Of a stretch of 64,000 nucleotides of DNA, positions 1 to 5,771 are shown one piece after another. This DNA is from Dyadobacter fermentans. GTDB taxonomy: Bacteria > Bacteroidota > Bacteroidia > Cytophagales > Spirosomataceae. Numbering within the stretch: the first letter of the stretch is position 1; every line of letters begins with the position of its first letter. The stretch covers positions 310,001 to 374,000 of the forward strand of contig NZ_JAHXBN010000007.1 in assembly GCF_019924045.1 (NCBI RefSeq), read 5' to 3'. The translations under genes were made by a program, and so were the position numbers. A model generated the notes under the pieces. It had not been told where the DNA came from. It made no database searches and saw only the letters and a program-made list of their open reading frames with translations.

Positions 1-242
1 TCGGACTCAACGGGAGGCGTGAGGAATCTCGACAATTCGATCCGGCTATGGCCATCCGGGGTAACCATCATGGCAATCTCGACGCGTTGCGAGGCCAGCC
101 CGGTAACACGCCCGGACCATTCGCCTTCAATGTTGGCGCGCCCTTCGAGAATCATGCCCAGTTCTGTAAAAAACGAAATGGCATTGTCGAGGGACTCCAC
201 AACGATGCCGATGTTATCCATTCTCAATAACTTGTTGCTCAT
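1..242 (-). CDS. VOC (glyoxalase/bleomycin resistance-like) protein, C-terminus cut by window edge
   Basis: The minus-strand frame opens with ATG at 242 and runs off the window edge, giving 80 residues. The start MSNKLLRMDNIGIVVESLDN and the following AISFFTELGM are the classic first beta-alpha unit of VOC-fold proteins (glyoxalase, dioxygenase, antibiotic-binding families), with a strand ending in hydrophobics, a helix and a short ELG turn. The metal or ligand residues further on are not visible, so the substrate cannot be given. It begins 33 bp after the stop of the DUF692/MNIO gene and may share its transcript, though such genes are common neighbours of many operons. Confidence 0.75.
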   Translation of the reverse strand, partial: MSNKLLRMDNIGIVVESLDNAISFFTELGMILEGRANIEGEWSGRVTGLASQRVEIAMMVTPDGHSRIELSRFLTPPVES

Positions 243-275: not shown

Positions 276-1409
276 TCAAACAAACCCATTTTTCCACTTT
301 TGTGCAATCGCCATGGCGGTTTCAAGCATATACGGAGCCCAGTTTTCAACTTCCCAGGCGGAGTTGCCGAGATCCGAGGAACGCAGCATTGCATGGGCAT
401 CACTTACGTTGGCGGCTGTTTCCAGGATATGCGATAGTTGCATTTGCTGCTTGTACAAATCGGGATCTTCCAGTGGCGTAGGGTGCGCAGTCCCCGCCAA
501 GGGGGCAAATAGGTGTTCAGGGATGGGAAGCGATTTTCGTGCCAACGATTTGACAATGCTGTCCATGCGAAGGAAATCAGACTGAAAGGCCGCCTGACTG
601 GCTTGCGTTTCGAGCGCGGTGCCCATTTGTTCAAGCACCACAAATTTGAGATTGGGGCAATGGGGAATTGCTTCGGCCAGGAAATCAAACACTGCCTCGG
701 GTACCGATTCATCGTGTGTATCCCGGCGCACGGGCTTGCGCGTGGGCGTGAGCGTATCATCCCAGCTTCCGCCTGAAATGTGGATTTCCCGCACTTTGTT
801 GAGCGGGTATAGGCCCAAAATATCCGCAAAATCGATGTCGAAATTGTGAGCCTGACAGTAAATGTTGTGTAAGTCGAGAATGATGAAGCCGTTGACGCTT
901 TCTACCAGTTGGTCTAAAAAGGTCCCGTGTTTCCTTACTTCTTCAATAGAATAGGAAAAAGCGAGGTTTTCCAGCCCAACCGGGCACTGGCATGCATCCT
1001 GGATCCTTTGCAGACGGTCTTTTCCAAGCGCCAATGTCCGGGGAGTAAGCGGAATGCCGATAGGCGCGCCTTTATGGAAATCTTCGCCCGTCATGAAACC
1101 GAAATGCTCGGTAATATGATCGAAGTTAAATTCGCCGGATAGCTTTTTGAGTCTGGCCAGCCATTCCTGCTGCCCGGGCGACCATTTGCCGGAAAACAAT
1201 GAAAAATATACGCCGTGCCCGATCAGCCGGCGATGGCTGCTGAATTCGCTTACCAGATCGGTAAACCAGGCGGGGATTTCCCCGAATTTGTAAAGAGTGT
1301 CAAAAGACCACTCAATGGCCTCGACCTTTTCCTGTTCAAACAAAGGCAAGGCCGCCTGCAAAATATGGGTATCCAGGTTGCAGGCGATCGATGAGTAGAT
1401 TTCAGCCAT
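276..1409 (-). CDS. DUF692 family multinuclear non-heme iron oxygenase (MNIO), probable peptide-modifying enzyme
   Basis: The protein has 377 residues. The first 280 match the DUF692 TIM-barrel pattern: H65, EH at 101-102, EN at 147-148, the LDLHN segment with D179, H181 and N182, then H188-N189, EIH ending at H210, DTH at 230-232 and E260. These are the expected ligands of the two- or three-iron centre. Characterised family members (MbnB, TglH, ChrH, bufferin enzymes) oxidatively rearrange cysteines in small ribosomal peptides, usually with a partner protein. Here no separate partner gene is seen, but residues about 280-377 form an extra C-terminal region beyond the usual family length of roughly 280. 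The ATG lies 12 bp after the stop of a 51-codon cysteine-containing gene, its likely substrate. The assignment to DUF692 is strong; peptide modification is inferred from family and context. Confidence 0.85.
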   Translation of the reverse strand: MAEIYSSIACNLDTHILQAALPLFEQEKVEAIEWSFDTLYKFGEIPAWFTDLVSEFSSHRRLIGHGVYFSLFSGKWSPGQQEWLARLKKLSGEFNFDHITEHFGFMTGEDFHKGAPIGIPLTPRTLALGKDRLQRIQDACQCPVGLENLAFSYSIEEVRKHGTFLDQLVESVNGFIILDLHNIYCQAHNFDIDFADILGLYPLNKVREIHISGGSWDDTLTPTRKPVRRDTHDESVPEAVFDFLAEAIPHCPNLKFVVLEQMGTALETQASQAAFQSDFLRMDSIVKSLARKSLPIPEHLFAPLAGTAHPTPLEDPDLYKQQMQLSHILETAANVSDAHAMLRSSDLGNSAWEVENWAPYMLETAMAIAQKWKNGFV

Positions 1410-1421
1410 GGATACGCGGCA

Positions 1422-1577
1422 TCACCCCATTCCGCAGGCCGGACAAGGGTCCACAGTTTTGTTTTTGGTCGTTTTTTCGCCGTTTGGTCCCACAGCATTG
1501 TCTGTGCAGGCAGTGGCAAGCGCAGTGACTGTAACCGCAACGGCTACTGCCTGTAAAACTGATTTTGAGATTTTCAT
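1422..1577 (-). CDS. Small lipoprotein-like peptide ending in CPACGMG, candidate RiPP precursor
   Basis: A 51-codon frame starts at ATG 1577 and stops at 1422. Residues 1-24 form an export signal: a lysine-containing start, a run of A, V, T and L, then ALATAC, which resembles a lipobox with C24. Residues 25-44 are polar (many N, K, T and G). The last seven residues are CPACGMG, giving two further cysteines in a C-x-x-C-G tail. Its stop is 12 bp from the start of the DUF692/MNIO gene on the same strand, the usual precursor-enzyme layout of MNIO clusters. Bufferin-type MNIO substrates also carry export signals. I infer that the CxxCG tail is modified in the cytoplasm and the peptide is then exported. 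An unmodified small lipoprotein is the alternative. Confidence 0.7.
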   Translation of the reverse strand: MKISKSVLQAVAVAVTVTALATACTDNAVGPNGEKTTKNKTVDPCPACGMG

Positions 1578-1861: not shown

Positions 1862-4180
1862 ATGAGCTTGCAGAACTTTACGAAGTACTTTTTCGGAATT
1901 GCGATACTGGTAGGTTCGGCTATTTCCTGCTTTCAGTGCATTCATACGAAAAAGGGCGGAAGGGGCTCCGGCGAGGTTTCGTACAGTTTCCAGGTAAGGC
2001 CTGTTCTCTCCGACAAGTGCTTTGCATGTCACGGGCCCGATGCCAAGCACCGCGAAGCAGGGTTGCGGTTGGACGTCGCGGAGAGTGCCTATGCGAAGCT
2101 CAGGGATGGAAAGGGATTTGCCATCGTCCCCGGCAATGCGGAAGCGTCGGAAGTTTACAAAAGGATTATTTCGGTTGATGCGGATTACCAGATGCCCACG
2201 CCGGAGTCCCATTTGGGGCTGCTTACGAAAGACGAAGTCGAAGTATTAAGAAAGTGGATCTCGCAAGGCGCTAAATACGAGAAGCACTGGGCGTTTGTAG
2301 CCCCGAAACAAAGTGCATTGCCGGAAGTCGGCGATGAAAGCTGGCCCAGAAATGAAATCGACTATTTTACCCTCGCCAAAATGGGGGAAGTAGGGTTGGA
2401 GCCTAACGAACCTGCGGGACAAGAGCAGCTGATCAAGAGGCTGTCGCTGGACCTTACCGGTTTGGCGCCGTCCCCGGATCTTCAGAAGAAATTCCAGGAT
2501 GGTGATACGGAACAGCGTTACGAAAAAATCGTCGACGAGCTCCTGAGCCAGCCGTCCTACGGAGAGAAAATGGCTGTGCATTGGCTCGATATTGCGCGTT
2601 ACGGAGATTCATTTGGTTATCAGAACGATCATTCCAGAACGCAGTGGCCGTGGCGCGACTGGGTGATCAATGCGTTCAACAGGAATATGCCCTACGACCG
2701 ATTCGTGACCTGGCAGCTGGCTGGCGATATGCTGCCGAATGCAGGAAAAGAGCAGATACTCGCCACCGCTTTCTTGCGGAACCACAAATACAACGAGGAA
2801 GCCGGTATCATTCTCGAGGAGTACCGGATTGAATACAACCTCGACAAAACCAAGACGGTTAGCTCCGGGCTGATGGGCCTGACGGTGGAGTGCGGGCAGT
2901 GCCACGACCACAAATATGATCCGATCTCTCAGGAAGATTACTACCGGTTGTTTGCCTTTTTCAACAATTCGAAGGAAAAGGGCCAGGACAAAATCCAGGG
3001 TGGTGTAGCCGTGGCGCCCATTCTGGAAGTGACGGATGCGGAACGAAAAAGCGTGTTGAATTTTATCAACAGCGCCGACACAAGCACCATCTGGGTTTCG
3101 GTAATGAGCGAAAATGATACGCTCCGCCCCACGCACGTGCTCAACAGGGGCGTGTACGATGCGCCGGGAAAGGTTGTGACGGCGAGTAGCCTGAAATCGG
3201 TGATGCCGTTCGACACCACGAAGTATGCAAAAAACCGTCTGGGCCTGGCCGGATGGATGTTCAATAAAAACAATCCGCTCACAGCGAGGGTATTTGTGAA
3301 CCGGATCTGGCAGGAGTTCTTCGGGCGCGGAATCGTCAAAAGTGCCGGCGATTTTGGAATGCAGGGAGATCTGCCCTCACACCCCGCATTGCTCGACTGG
3401 CTCGCGGTGGATTTCATGAACCATGGCTGGAACGTGAAGCGCCTGGTAAAGCAGATCGTTACGTCCGCCACCTACCGGCAGTCGTCCAGACTGACCGAGG
3501 CGAAAAAGGAGAAAGACCCCGAGAATATTTACCTGTCGCGCGGGGCGCGCTACCGCGTGCCTGCGGAGATGGTGCGCGATATTGTGTTGTCGACCAGCGG
3601 CTTGCTGAATCCCGAAATAGGCGGGGCGAGTGTGAAGCCATACCAACCCAAGGGCCTTTGGGAAGGCAGTACAGCCAACCGGGGCGACCTCACGAAGTAT
3701 GTACAGGACACGGCCGGGCAGCTCTACCGGCGCGGCTTGTATACGTTTGTCAAAGTGACGTTGCCGCCGCCCGCGATGATCGTCTTCGACGCCAGTAATC
3801 GCGACCATTGCGAAGTAAAACGGCAAAAAACCAATACGCCGTTGCAGGCGCTGATCATGCTGAACGACCCCGCCGTGCTGGAAGCCTCGCGCGTGCTGGC
3901 CGAGCGAACCGTTGGCGGGAAAATGCCGGTAGAGGAAAAAGTACGGCAGCTGTTTCAGCGGATTGTGTGCCGCAGGCCGACAGAGAAGGAAGTAGATCTG
4001 CTGGTAGGCTATTACCATTCGGAACTCGCCAAGTTCTCGAAGGACCAGCAAAAGGCCGGGAAGGTGCTGAATGTGGGAGACTTCGTACACGAAAAAGGAG
4101 TACGAAAGGATCAGGCCGCTGCATTGATGCGGGTCATCAACACGATATACAACATGGAAGAAACGATTACGAAGAGTTGA
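1862..4180 (+). CDS. PSCyt1-DUF1549-DUF1553 domain protein (Planctomycete-type cytochrome c protein)
   Basis: The start follows a purine-rich AAAAGGGGAT site. Residues 1-23 form a hydrophobic signal ending in AISC, a possible lipobox. The PSCyt1 domain covers about 40-140 and has the heme-binding CFACH (C53, C56, H57). DUF1549 covers about 165-370 and includes a second CxxCH, CGQCH at 344-348. DUF1553 covers about 455-720, with the NPLTARVFVNRIW and GDFG landmarks. The linker between DUF1549 and DUF1553 is only about 85 residues, so this is a compact member lacking the lectin-like inserts often found there. The gene is followed by a DUF1501 gene, the standard partner. The family's biochemical role is unproven; redox-linked breakdown of polymers or small metabolites in the envelope is usually suggested. 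Confidence 0.9.
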   Translation: MSLQNFTKYFFGIAILVGSAISCFQCIHTKKGGRGSGEVSYSFQVRPVLSDKCFACHGPDAKHREAGLRLDVAESAYAKLRDGKGFAIVPGNAEASEVYKRIISVDADYQMPTPESHLGLLTKDEVEVLRKWISQGAKYEKHWAFVAPKQSALPEVGDESWPRNEIDYFTLAKMGEVGLEPNEPAGQEQLIKRLSLDLTGLAPSPDLQKKFQDGDTEQRYEKIVDELLSQPSYGEKMAVHWLDIARYGDSFGYQNDHSRTQWPWRDWVINAFNRNMPYDRFVTWQLAGDMLPNAGKEQILATAFLRNHKYNEEAGIILEEYRIEYNLDKTKTVSSGLMGLTVECGQCHDHKYDPISQEDYYRLFAFFNNSKEKGQDKIQGGVAVAPILEVTDAERKSVLNFINSADTSTIWVSVMSENDTLRPTHVLNRGVYDAPGKVVTASSLKSVMPFDTTKYAKNRLGLAGWMFNKNNPLTARVFVNRIWQEFFGRGIVKSAGDFGMQGDLPSHPALLDWLAVDFMNHGWNVKRLVKQIVTSATYRQSSRLTEAKKEKDPENIYLSRGARYRVPAEMVRDIVLSTSGLLNPEIGGASVKPYQPKGLWEGSTANRGDLTKYVQDTAGQLYRRGLYTFVKVTLPPPAMIVFDASNRDHCEVKRQKTNTPLQALIMLNDPAVLEASRVLAERTVGGKMPVEEKVRQLFQRIVCRRPTEKEVDLLVGYYHSELAKFSKDQQKAGKVLNVGDFVHEKGVRKDQAAALMRVINTIYNMEETITKS

Positions 4181-4313
4181 AAAGGCTTTAAGCTATAAGC
4201 CGTAGGCTATAAGCGGTGTTCGGTAAGCATAGCCTGGGGCTTAAAGCCGGTTATAAAGATGAAACATTATAAAAAGCTTACGGCCTAAGGCCTAATGCTT
4301 ACGACAATAAAAT
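4181..4313. repeat. Intergenic tract of imperfect TAAGC/GGCTTA repeats
   Basis: The 133-bp gap between the PSCyt1 and DUF1501 genes is built from variants of short units such as GCTATAAGC, AAGCCGTAGGC, GGCTTAAAGCC and GCTTACGGCC, in both orientations. Examples are CTATAAGCCGTAGGCTATAAGC near 4192-4213 and GGCCTAAGGCCTAATGC near 4285-4301. It has no ORF. It could be a degenerate interspersed repeat or mRNA-stability element; copy number elsewhere cannot be seen. Confidence 0.45.
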
Positions 4314-5771
4314 ATGGAAAAGCCCATTTTTGATTTTGGAATGAATATCAACCGCAGGCATTTCCTGTCCAAGATGAGCCTTGGCCTTGGAAGTGCGGCG
4401 CTGGGCTCCCTTTTAATACCTGATATTTTCAAGGGAGGTGAGGAAACGAGCGTCAACGATATCGTATCCGGTTTGCCGCATTTTGCGCCCAAAGCGAAAC
4501 GGGTTATCTATCTCTTTCAAAATGGCGCGCCCTCTCAGTATGAACTGTTCGACCACAAGCCGTTACTCAATAAAATGTTTGGGGAGAATCTGCCCGAGTC
4601 GGTGAGGGGAGGGCAGCGGCTGACGGGCATGACGGCCAATCAGACCAGTTTCCCATTGGCCGGATCGATTTTCAACTTTGCTCAGCATGGTCACTCGGGC
4701 GCGTGGGTAAGCGAATTGCTCCCGCACACGGCCAGGATCGCGGACGACCTCTGCTTCATTAAGTCGATGAATACCGATGCGATCAACCACGATCCTGCCC
4801 TTACGTTTTTCCAGAGCGGGGCGCAGGTGGGAAGCCGCCCCAGCATGGGCGCCTGGCTCAGTTATGGGCTTGGGAGCGAAAATCAGAACCTGCCGGCCTT
4901 TTGCGTGTTGCTGTCGCGCGGGATCGGCAATGGACAAGGGGTGTATTCCAAGTTGTGGACGAACGGCTTTCTCGATTCGGTGCACCAGGGCGTGCAGTTC
5001 AGCAGCGGTGAAAATCCTGTGCTCTACCTGGGCGATCCCGATGGAATGGACCGAAGCGAGCGGCGCGAAATGCTCGATAAGCTCGCCGCACTGAACGAAG
5101 GAACCTTCGCCGAATACCAGGATCCCGAGATCGTTACGAAAATTCAGCAATATGAAATGGCGTTCCGTATGCAGGCTGCCGTTCCTGAAATTACGGATAT
5201 GAGCAAGGAGCCGGAGTCGATCGTCAAATTGTACGGCCCCGACTGCCTGGTGCCCGGTACTTATGCGGCCAATTGCCTTCTGGCCCGGAAACTATCCGAG
5301 CAGGGCGTGCGGTTCGTTCAGTTGTACCACCAGGGCTGGGACGGGCATTCCAATCTGCCAAAGGAGATCAGGGCGCAGTCGATGGATGTGGATCAGGCGT
5401 CGGCGGCACTGGTAACGGACCTGAAACAACGGGGATTATTGGACGAAACCCTGGTGATCTGGGGTGGGGAATTTGGCCGGACCAACTACTGCCAGGGCAA
5501 GTTTTCCAGGGAAGACTATGGCCGCGACCATCACCCGAGGGCGTTTACGATCTGGATGGCTGGCGGCGGTATCAAGCCCGGGATTTCATACGGTGAGACC
5601 GACGATTTCGGCTACAATATCATTAAAGATCCGGTTCATGTTCATGATCTGCATGCCACCATTCTCAACCAGTTGGGGCTCGATCACGAGAAGCTGGTTT
5701 TCAAGCACCAGGGTCGGCGTTACCGTCTGACGGACGTGGCGGGTAAGCTGGTGAAGGGAATCATTGCCTGA
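4314..5771 (+). CDS. DUF1501 domain-containing protein
   Basis: The protein has 485 residues. ATG 4314 is used here; ATG 4341 (MNINRRHFLSK) is an equally good start. The N-terminus carries NRRHFLSKMSLGLG, a twin-arginine-like motif followed by a hydrophobic stretch, so it is probably exported folded. The rest matches DUF1501, which has an alkaline phosphatase/sulfatase-like fold: the QNGAPSQYELFDHKP segment near 60-80, HQGWDGHSN near 340 and WGGEFGRTNYCQG near 380-395, followed by GRDHHPRAF with paired histidines. DUF1501 genes almost always sit beside PSCyt1/DUF1553 genes, as here, and the two products probably act together in the periplasm. The substrate is unknown. Confidence 0.9.
   Translation: MEKPIFDFGMNINRRHFLSKMSLGLGSAALGSLLIPDIFKGGEETSVNDIVSGLPHFAPKAKRVIYLFQNGAPSQYELFDHKPLLNKMFGENLPESVRGGQRLTGMTANQTSFPLAGSIFNFAQHGHSGAWVSELLPHTARIADDLCFIKSMNTDAINHDPALTFFQSGAQVGSRPSMGAWLSYGLGSENQNLPAFCVLLSRGIGNGQGVYSKLWTNGFLDSVHQGVQFSSGENPVLYLGDPDGMDRSERREMLDKLAALNEGTFAEYQDPEIVTKIQQYEMAFRMQAAVPEITDMSKEPESIVKLYGPDCLVPGTYAANCLLARKLSEQGVRFVQLYHQGWDGHSNLPKEIRAQSMDVDQASAALVTDLKQRGLLDETLVIWGGEFGRTNYCQGKFSREDYGRDHHPRAFTIWMAGGGIKPGISYGETDDFGYNIIKDPVHVHDLHATILNQLGLDHEKLVFKHQGRRYRLTDVAGKLVKGIIA

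What the first reader, a model, noticed from the sequence alone, without database searches (positions are those of the whole stretch)
276..1577. A MNIO (DUF692) enzyme paired with a 51-residue exported peptide ending in CPACGMG
The small gene is only 12 bp from the MNIO gene, has a lipoprotein-type export signal and a CxxCG tail. MNIO enzymes modify cysteines of small ribosomal peptides. The tail and the lipobox together differ from precursor types I know well, so this may be a distinct family of modified, possibly metal-binding, lipopeptides. The enzyme motifs and spacing are seen directly; modification is inferred.
Basis: partly seen in the sequence, partly recalled or inferred. Interest (0 to 1): 0.85.

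Follow-up and report, generated by a model that had tools for sequence, protein, structure and literature searches.

The report
Lipid-anchored modified peptide gene pair
This is a soil-type bacterium's copy of a recently described gene pair that makes a small, chemically cyclised, lipid-anchored peptide; the pair itself is known, but its control region suggests that it is switched on together with outer-membrane genes by a damage-sensing regulator, which gives a testable lead to its unknown role.

Summary
Observation confirmed: a 377-residue MNIO (DUF692) enzyme (276-1409, minus) lies 12 bp behind a 51-residue lipoprotein-type peptide ending CPACGMG (1422-1577, minus). It is not a new family. 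The peptide passes NCBIfam's model for chryseobasin-related MNIO peptides; the enzyme is 66% identical to Dyadobacter crusticola DybH. A 2025 preprint (PMC12636315) showed that DybH converts this tail into a macrocycle plus hydantoin (-4 Da) and that the lipobox cysteine is lipidated ("DAG-RiPP"); it calls the function unclear.

What I add: upstream is a promoter-like box, TT[AC]CAAC-N18-[AG]TC, in 33 of 42 related loci. The same box precedes an ECF sigma gene in 50 of 50 loci examined, an LVIVD lipoprotein gene in 30 of 30 examined, and 0 of 535 control upstreams. The gene after the sigma gene resembles outer-membrane-spanning anti-sigma factors. The pair is thus probably an accessory member of an outer-membrane stress regulon like EcfO-Reo/Das-Dma. 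Against: this genome's box ends ATC, whereas 49 of 50 sigma-gene boxes end GTC, and a first test in other families failed, 0 of 51.

The parts
276..1409 (-). MNIO (DUF692/UPF0276) enzyme, 377 aa, DybH-type member of the ChrH subfamily
   Evidence: PF05114 105.8 bits; NF050165 MNIO_ChrH 397.9 bits, below its cut-off of 600; 66% identical to D. crusticola DybH; model pLDDT 88.0 with helices at 316-331, 335-344, 359-373; Foldseek best hits TglHI, DUF692 3bww, MbnB
1422..1577 (-). Precursor peptide, 51 aa, DybA-type (chryseobasin-related MNIO class RiPP peptide)
   Evidence: NF050125 67.4 bits, cut-off 40; 19 homologues listed up to E 10, 18 of them below 1e-4; conserved upstream of the enzyme in 42 of 42 loci
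1506..1508 (-). Codon of lipobox cysteine C24 (L20-A-T-A-C24), expected lipidation and SPII cleavage site
   Evidence: read from sequence; lipobox pattern met in 42 of 42 loci (no SignalP run); lipidation shown for DybA in PMC12636315
1425..1445 (-). CPACGMG tail (residues 45-51), expected site of the -4 Da macrocycle/hydantoin modification
   Evidence: sequence; CPxCGxG in 42 of 42; chemistry shown for DybA in PMC12636315
1619..1648 (-). Promoter-like box GGTTACAACC-N17-ATC (ECF-type -35 and -10 elements), 41 nt between its end and the start codon
   Evidence: TT[AC]CAAC-N18-[AG]TC in 33 of 42 homologous loci

Best explanation
The pair is a DybA/DybH system. The MNIO in the cytoplasm oxidises the CPACGMG tail by four electrons to a macrocycle with a hydantoin and a free thiol; the peptide is then exported, diacylglycerylated on C24, cleaved by signal peptidase II, and placed in the envelope as a tiny modified lipoprotein. 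(These steps are shown in print for a 66% identical enzyme and its peptide in E. coli, and inferred here.) Its transcription is probably driven by an ECF sigma factor encoded elsewhere in the genome (G000:C50:15392-15958), held by an anti-sigma factor that runs from the cytoplasm to an outer-membrane barrel, as in EcfO-Reo and Das-Dma. The other predicted targets are mostly lipoproteins and glycosyltransferases, so the peptide would be made when the outer membrane is disturbed. (Inferred from shared promoter sequence only.)
For: Identity: and PMC12636315. Regulation: the box at dybA in 33 of 42 loci at spacing 18, and 0-2 loci at any other spacing from 10 to 25; at the ECF gene 50 of 50 loci examined; at the LVIVD lipoprotein gene 30 of 30 examined, with 0 of 535 control upstreams. 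The pattern GTTMCAACC-N17-RTC has 7 sites in the 8.0 Mb genome against 2 for the reversed control; they precede dybA, that ECF gene, a DUF4136 lipoprotein, a second lipoprotein-like gene, a GT87 and a GT2 gene, and one lies inside a long frame. The gene after the ECF gene has one TM segment at 54-77 and an OMP_b-brl_2 domain at 294-481. All 41 family genomes with the enzyme have the ECF gene; 48 of 48 genus genomes have it, 27 of 48 the enzyme. Loci from Chitinophaga and from a mixed, largely Saprospiraceae group show other ECF-like boxes at dybA, which also precede homologues of the same LVIVD lipoprotein and, in one Saprospiraceae genome, an ECF gene followed by a TM protein. In P. vulgatus the EcfO-Reo regulon includes NigD lipoproteins and a glycosyltransferase gene and is induced by a toxin thought to cause envelope stress (PMC9308784 and PMC13114119, passages).
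Against: In this genome the -10 element is ATC; among the 33 dybA boxes 17 end GTC and 16 ATC, whereas 49 of 50 ECF boxes end GTC. 9 of 42 loci miss the strict box and 5 of 42 also the looser one. 0 of 51 ECF homologues from the Chitinophaga and Saprospiraceae-group genomes have the lineage boxes within 300 nt upstream. The strict box is in 16 of 79 named loci, Dyadobacter and Spirosoma by title. Genome-wide counts are only about 2- to 4-fold over the reversed control (7 vs 2; 32 vs 18; 38 vs 10). The -35 element alone, with one mismatch, is no rarer in the window than expected (6 vs 3.0). No expression data; the loci are related by descent.
Confidence: 0.75

Rival explanations
1. A metal-buffering lipopeptide like lipidated bufferins or oxazolins: the modified CxxC tail binds copper at the envelope.
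For: MNIO enzymes of other subfamilies make copper-binding groups, and some bufferins and oxazolins are predicted or shown to be lipidated (PMC12452194 passages; PMC12636315). Sigma factor genes occur in Buf1 clusters.
Against: The enzyme scores 397.9 bits with ChrH against 89.6 with BufB and 75.3 with HvfB. No neighbour family, hence no partner gene, is conserved beside the pair. The DybH product showed no aromatic absorbance.
Confidence: 0.1
2. A ligand for nutrient or metal scavenging that is taken up again through SusCD-type importers.
For: PMC12636315 notes frequent SusCD co-occurrence. Downstream of the enzyme in this genome, on the opposite strand, lie two genes that I read as SusD- and SusC-like (clusters 13 and 1 in L074; by eye, not annotated by a call).
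Against: Cluster 1 is in 21 of 42 loci, 10 of them in one inherited gene order, and such genes are very common in these genomes (recalled). I ran no background count.
Confidence: 0.1
3. An antibacterial or lipid II-binding peptide, as the preprint's authors suggest from the likeness of the macrocycle to the nisin B ring.
For: Discussion of PMC12636315; patchy distribution (27 of 48 genus genomes) suits an accessory weapon.
Against: No neighbour family, so no immunity or export gene, is conserved; the peptide would be anchored by lipid in the producer's own envelope.
Confidence: 0.15
4. The box is a promoter of another ECF sigma factor, or of several, and says nothing on outer-membrane stress.
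For: 86 first-look ECF candidates in this genome (15 scored); ECF sigma factors can share promoters (PMC9723704 passages); the -10 at dybA here differs from the ECF gene's own.
Against: Of 7 sites in this genome one is at an ECF gene, and it is this one; 50 of 50 examined in relatives.
Confidence: 0.25

Closest known systems
DybA/DybH of Dyadobacter crusticola DSM 16708 (DAG-RiPP; PMC12636315)
   Same: Precursor directly upstream of the enzyme; CPACGMG tail; lipobox cysteine; no conserved partner gene; 66% identical enzyme. L174 is this species' locus by its record title, and its peptide has the M26-D27 residues that the paper names.
   Different: Peptide and enzyme sequences differ; the product of the window's pair has not been measured.
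ChrA/ChrH of Chryseobacterium (chryseobasin; PMC12636315 as read, PMC10214503 passages)
   Same: CPACGMG tail; same enzyme subfamily with a C-terminal helical domain.
   Different: Per those papers ChrA has an SPI signal, lacks the extra cysteine and ends S-methylated (+10 Da). The window enzyme scores 397.9 against the ChrH cut-off of 600 and the peptide 10.5 against the ChrA cut-off of 50.
Bufferins and oxazolins (BufABC, HvfABC)
   Same: MNIO-modified exported peptides, some lipidated.
   Different: Made with a partner protein (BufC, HvfC); thiooxazole or oxazolone-thioamide products; much lower profile scores for this enzyme.
EcfO-Reo and Das-Dma sigma/anti-sigma pairs of Bacteroidales (passages of PMC13088901, PMC13114119, PMC9308784)
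   Same: ECF gene followed by an anti-sigma with cytoplasmic part, one TM segment, long linker and outer-membrane barrel; targets include lipoproteins and a glycosyltransferase.
   Different: Here in Spirosomataceae, with an MNIO-lipopeptide pair among the predicted targets; sequence comparison with EcfO or Das and ECF group assignment were not done.

Membership tests
Chryseobasin-related MNIO RiPP peptide (NF050125) / DybA type | Passes the curated model | tested here: met
   67.4 bits, cut-off 40
Chryseobasin-related MNIO RiPP peptide (NF050125) / DybA type | CPxCGxG at the C-terminus | tested here: met
   CPACGMG; 42 of 42 loci CPxCGxG
Chryseobasin-related MNIO RiPP peptide (NF050125) / DybA type | Lipobox with an extra conserved cysteine | tested here: met
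   LATAC24; 42 of 42 loci by a pattern recalled from PROSITE's lipobox rule; no SignalP run
Chryseobasin-related MNIO RiPP peptide (NF050125) / DybA type | -4 Da macrocycle and hydantoin; lipidation | not testable with these tools
   Shown for DybA in PMC12636315 only
DybH-type MNIO (ChrH subfamily) | MNIO domain and fold | tested here: met
   PF05114; the nine best Foldseek hits are MNIO/DUF692 structures, TM by target 0.70-0.78
DybH-type MNIO (ChrH subfamily) | Extra C-terminal helical bundle | tested here: met
   Helices 316-331, 335-344, 359-373 in the model, block pLDDT 86-95 for residues 311-370
DybH-type MNIO (ChrH subfamily) | No conserved partner-protein gene | tested here: met
   No neighbour family in more than 21 of 42 loci (ORFs of 100 aa or more only)
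ChrH equivalog (NF050165) | Passes the curated cut-off | tested here: not met
   397.9 bits, cut-off 600
Bufferin maturase BufB (NF050167) | Passes the curated cut-off | tested here: not met
   89.6 bits, cut-off 310
EcfO-Reo / Das-Dma pair (for the predicted regulator) | ECF gene followed by anti-sigma with TM segment and outer-membrane barrel | tested here: met
   P0020 Sigma70_r2 and r4_2; next gene TM 54-77 and OMP_b-brl_2 294-481; anti-sigma activity itself not tested
EcfO-Reo / Das-Dma pair (for the predicted regulator) | ECF21 group membership | not tested
   No ECF classification library at hand
EcfO-Reo / Das-Dma pair (for the predicted regulator) | Sigma factor controls the pair in cells | not testable with these tools
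   Only shared promoter sequence

The most novel reading that the evidence does not exclude
DAG-RiPPs of the DybA type are effectors of a Bacteroidota outer-membrane damage response: an ECF sigma factor released from an anti-sigma factor that spans both membranes turns on dybAH along with surface lipoproteins and glycosyltransferases, and the lipid-anchored thiohemiaminal macrocycle protects or remodels the outer membrane, or is shed in vesicles. This would be a first physiological role for the family and a trans-encoded mode of MNIO RiPP control.
Probability: 0.4. Interest if true: 0.75.

Novelty: new member of a known kind. Interest (0 to 1): 0.5.

Why it matters
The chemistry and lipidation of DybA-type peptides are published, but that paper calls their function unclear. 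A promoter shared with an outer-membrane-sensing type of sigma factor turns 'what is it for?' into a direct test: delete the anti-sigma gene and look for the peptide. I found no account of how this family is regulated: the main text of PMC12636315 has no passage with 'promoter' or 'regulat', and library searches listed no such paper; in the one paper listed the words occur only in its references. The library lacks most subscription papers, and supplements could not be read.

Tried and rejected
Neighbouring PSCyt/PSD1 and DUF1501 genes as partners: beside the pair in only 3 of 42 loci (L034, L035, L074), so rejected. A conserved transporter, protease or partner gene: none (clusters not annotated one by one). 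SusCD link: not pursued beyond counts. Novel precursor family: rejected. Co-evolution of the box with ECF homologues in other families, as first posed: negative, 0 of 51. Those 51 were 21 of 21 listed hits from ten Chitinophaga genomes and 30 of the more than 120 listed hits from twelve others. The later pattern scans partly rescue the idea through the LVIVD gene, but were made after that failure, with patterns chosen from the dybA upstreams; the ECF gene they found in G233 was not among the hits. The strict box was not found outside Dyadobacter and Spirosoma titles. The groups were made by me from record titles and are mixed: the 24-locus group also holds Hymenobacter, Pontibacter, Taibaiella and others; the 34-locus group holds Saprospiraceae, Fluviicola, Chitinophagales MAGs and unnamed Bacteroidota. 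Shuffles are of single bases (300 and 3 rounds) and do not correct for shared descent. The control uses mechanical ORFs of 100 aa or more, not annotated genes. Profile search against solved structures gave two hits, TglHI and 3bww, over part of the enzyme. Papers on other Bacteroidota regulons gave passages without this box.

Full report
What is there. On the minus strand, ORF 1422-1577 codes a 51-residue peptide (MKISKSVLQAVAVAVTVTALATACTDNAVGPNGEKTTKNKTVDPCPACGMG) and ORF 276-1409 a 377-residue enzyme, with 12 bp between them. The enzyme has the MNIO domain PF05114 (105.8 bits, cut-off 25). NCBIfam puts the peptide in NF050125, 'chryseobasin-related MNIO class RiPP peptide' (67.4 bits, cut-off 40). 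The enzyme is closest to NF050165 MNIO_ChrH but under its curated cut-off (397.9 of 600), and far from BufB (89.6 of 310) and HvfB (75.3 of 360).

Is it real and conserved? The enzyme is found in 27 of 48 genus genomes and 41 of 222 family genomes searched, at E <= 1e-20. I fetched 18-kb stretches around 42 copies: own genome, one in each of the 40 other genomes, and a second, interrupted copy in G036. All 42 have a peptide with a lipobox pattern and a CPxCGxG end upstream, none more than about 200 nt from the enzyme. Against the two closest homologues the peptide gene shows 13 and 11 synonymous versus 2 and 3 non-synonymous codon changes. Among ORFs of 100 aa or more, no other gene is conserved: after the enzyme (42 of 42) the most frequent family is in 21 of 42 loci and the next in 14. 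The cytochrome and DUF1501 genes next to the pair in the window are beside it in 3 of 42. In 80 named Bacteroidota loci (the best 80 of 221 confirmed), 79 have a precursor by my script and one (L181) does not.

What it is. PMC12636315 (bioRxiv, November 2025; abstract, introduction, results, discussion and the first part of the figure legends read) describes DybA/DybH of Dyadobacter crusticola DSM 16708. DybH alone causes a loss of four hydrogens at CPACGMG, giving a macrocycle and a hydantoin with a free thiol; the lipobox cysteine of DybA receives a diacylglycerol and an acyl chain in E. coli. L174 is that species' locus by title; its enzyme is 66% identical to the window's. An AlphaFold2 model from 32 sequences (pLDDT 88.0, pTM 0.89) has three C-terminal helices after the main fold, a feature that the paper gives for the subfamily. 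The nine best Foldseek hits are TglH, the DUF692 protein 3bww and MbnB structures. So the pair is a new member of a described kind; lipidation and modification in this strain are inferred.

Control region. The paper's main text has no passage with 'promoter' or 'regulat', and its one hit for 'sigma' is a supplier's name; it calls the function unclear. Comparing the 300 bases upstream of the 42 precursors showed a shared box. TT[AC]CAAC-N18-[AG]TC lies within 160 bases of the start in 33 of 42; at every other spacing from 10 to 25 the count is 0 to 2. The looser TT[AC]CAAC-N19-TC is in 37 of 42, against a mean of 0.07 and a maximum of 1 in 300 shuffles. In the 33 boxes the pattern's own letters are invariant by construction; the C and A that follow AAC were not required and stand at 76% and 79%, while the middle of the spacer stands at 33-45%. 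17 of the 33 end GTC and 16 ATC. AAC in the -35 and GTC or CGT in the -10 element are typical of ECF sigma promoters (recalled; a CGT -10 box is read so in PMC9723704). In the window the box is at 1619-1648 and ends ATC; the ten-base -35 sequence occurs once exactly in 64 kb, and six times with up to one mismatch, against 3.0 expected.

Who reads the box? In the own genome, GTTMCAACC-N17-RTC occurs 7 times, against 2 for the reversed control. One site is upstream of dybA, one of an ECF sigma gene (G000:C50:15392-15958), others of a DUF4136 lipoprotein, another lipoprotein-like gene, a GT87 and a GT2 glycosyltransferase; one lies inside a long frame. In eight relatives the stricter GTC pattern gives 32 sites against 18 for the control; 30 of the 32 were read, several inside long frames and so probably chance, but the ECF gene, the LVIVD lipoprotein, the glycosyltransferases and dybA recur. 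The ECF gene's own upstream has the box in 50 of 50 loci examined (the 30 best-scoring plus 20 that I chose from genomes with the pair, out of 179 genomes with the gene); at other spacings the count is at most 5, and 49 of 50 end GTC. The LVIVD lipoprotein of the same gene group has it in 30 of 30 loci examined (the best-scoring, out of 41 of 48 genus genomes with the gene); 535 other upstream stretches from the dyb loci have none.

The regulator. The gene after the ECF gene codes 515 residues with one TM segment at 54-77 and an outer-membrane barrel domain at 294-481; a serpin and the LVIVD lipoprotein follow. In all 50 loci the next frame is longer than 250 residues; 40 of 50 pass my TM cut-off and 10 do not. 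This is the layout described for Reo and Dma anti-sigma factors (passages of PMC13088901, PMC13114119, PMC9308784). [quoted passage not shown] All 41 family genomes with the enzyme have the ECF gene; all 48 genus genomes have it, only 27 the enzyme, so the pair would be an accessory target.

Outside the family. The strict box is in 16 of 79 named loci, 13 Dyadobacter and 3 Spirosoma by title. In the two other groups, gapped-word counts show other ECF-like boxes: CCAAC-N19-GTC in 13 of 34 and GTAAC-N16-CGT in 9 of 24, against a maximum of 4 in three shuffles each. A first test, whether ECF homologues there carry these boxes, was negative: 0 of 51. Scanning whole genomes with the boxes gave 38 sites against 10 control in ten Chitinophaga genomes, and 8 against 1 in seven others. 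Of these, 30 of 38 and 7 of 8 were read; many precede short lipoprotein-like genes. They include homologues of the same LVIVD lipoprotein (39%, 40% and 46% identity; L333, L334 where it is split in two frames, L335) and, in one Saprospiraceae genome, an ECF gene 33% identical to the Dyadobacter one and followed by a 437-residue frame with one N-proximal TM segment. So dybA shares its lineage's box with the LVIVD gene in three groups, on few genomes in the last two.

Verdict. Chemistry and kind: known (about 0.95 sure that this is a DybA/DybH pair). Regulation by the ECF factor: likely (about 0.65), from sequence alone. Role in outer-membrane stress: plausible (about 0.4). Sigma factor genes near MNIO peptides have a precedent in Buf1 clusters (PMC12452194 passages), but there the genes are neighbours.

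Noticed in passing
window 1862-5771 (+): A PSCyt1/PSCyt2/PSD1 protein (772 aa) followed by a DUF1501 protein (485 aa), divergent from the peptide gene; beside the pair in only 3 of 42 loci.
   Followed up: partly
window 3-242 (-): Glyoxalase-like frame running off the window, on the same strand downstream of the enzyme; Pfam hits below cut-off.
   Followed up: no
L075, L028, L029 (G036:C62): A second, interrupted copy of the pair: the enzyme matches in two overlapping pieces with a stop, and the upstream lacks the box at the usual spacing. Described only.
   Followed up: partly
L163:4546-5814 (-): A serpin with a lipoprotein-like start behind the anti-sigma-like gene; an inner start would give MKISKKSITV..., like the start of the peptide.
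   Followed up: no
L183, L190, L191, L192, L193, L200, just upstream of the called precursor: Upstream text seems to end another CPxCGMG frame, i.e. tandem precursors, or in L190 a precursor start called wrongly by my script (read by eye).
   Followed up: no
L296, L297, L302, L314, L318 and L298, L309, L316, L317, L321: In Chitinophaga the dybA-type box recurs upstream of two sets of small lipoprotein-like genes, 141-142 and 165-166 residues, candidate co-regulated genes of unknown function.
   Followed up: no
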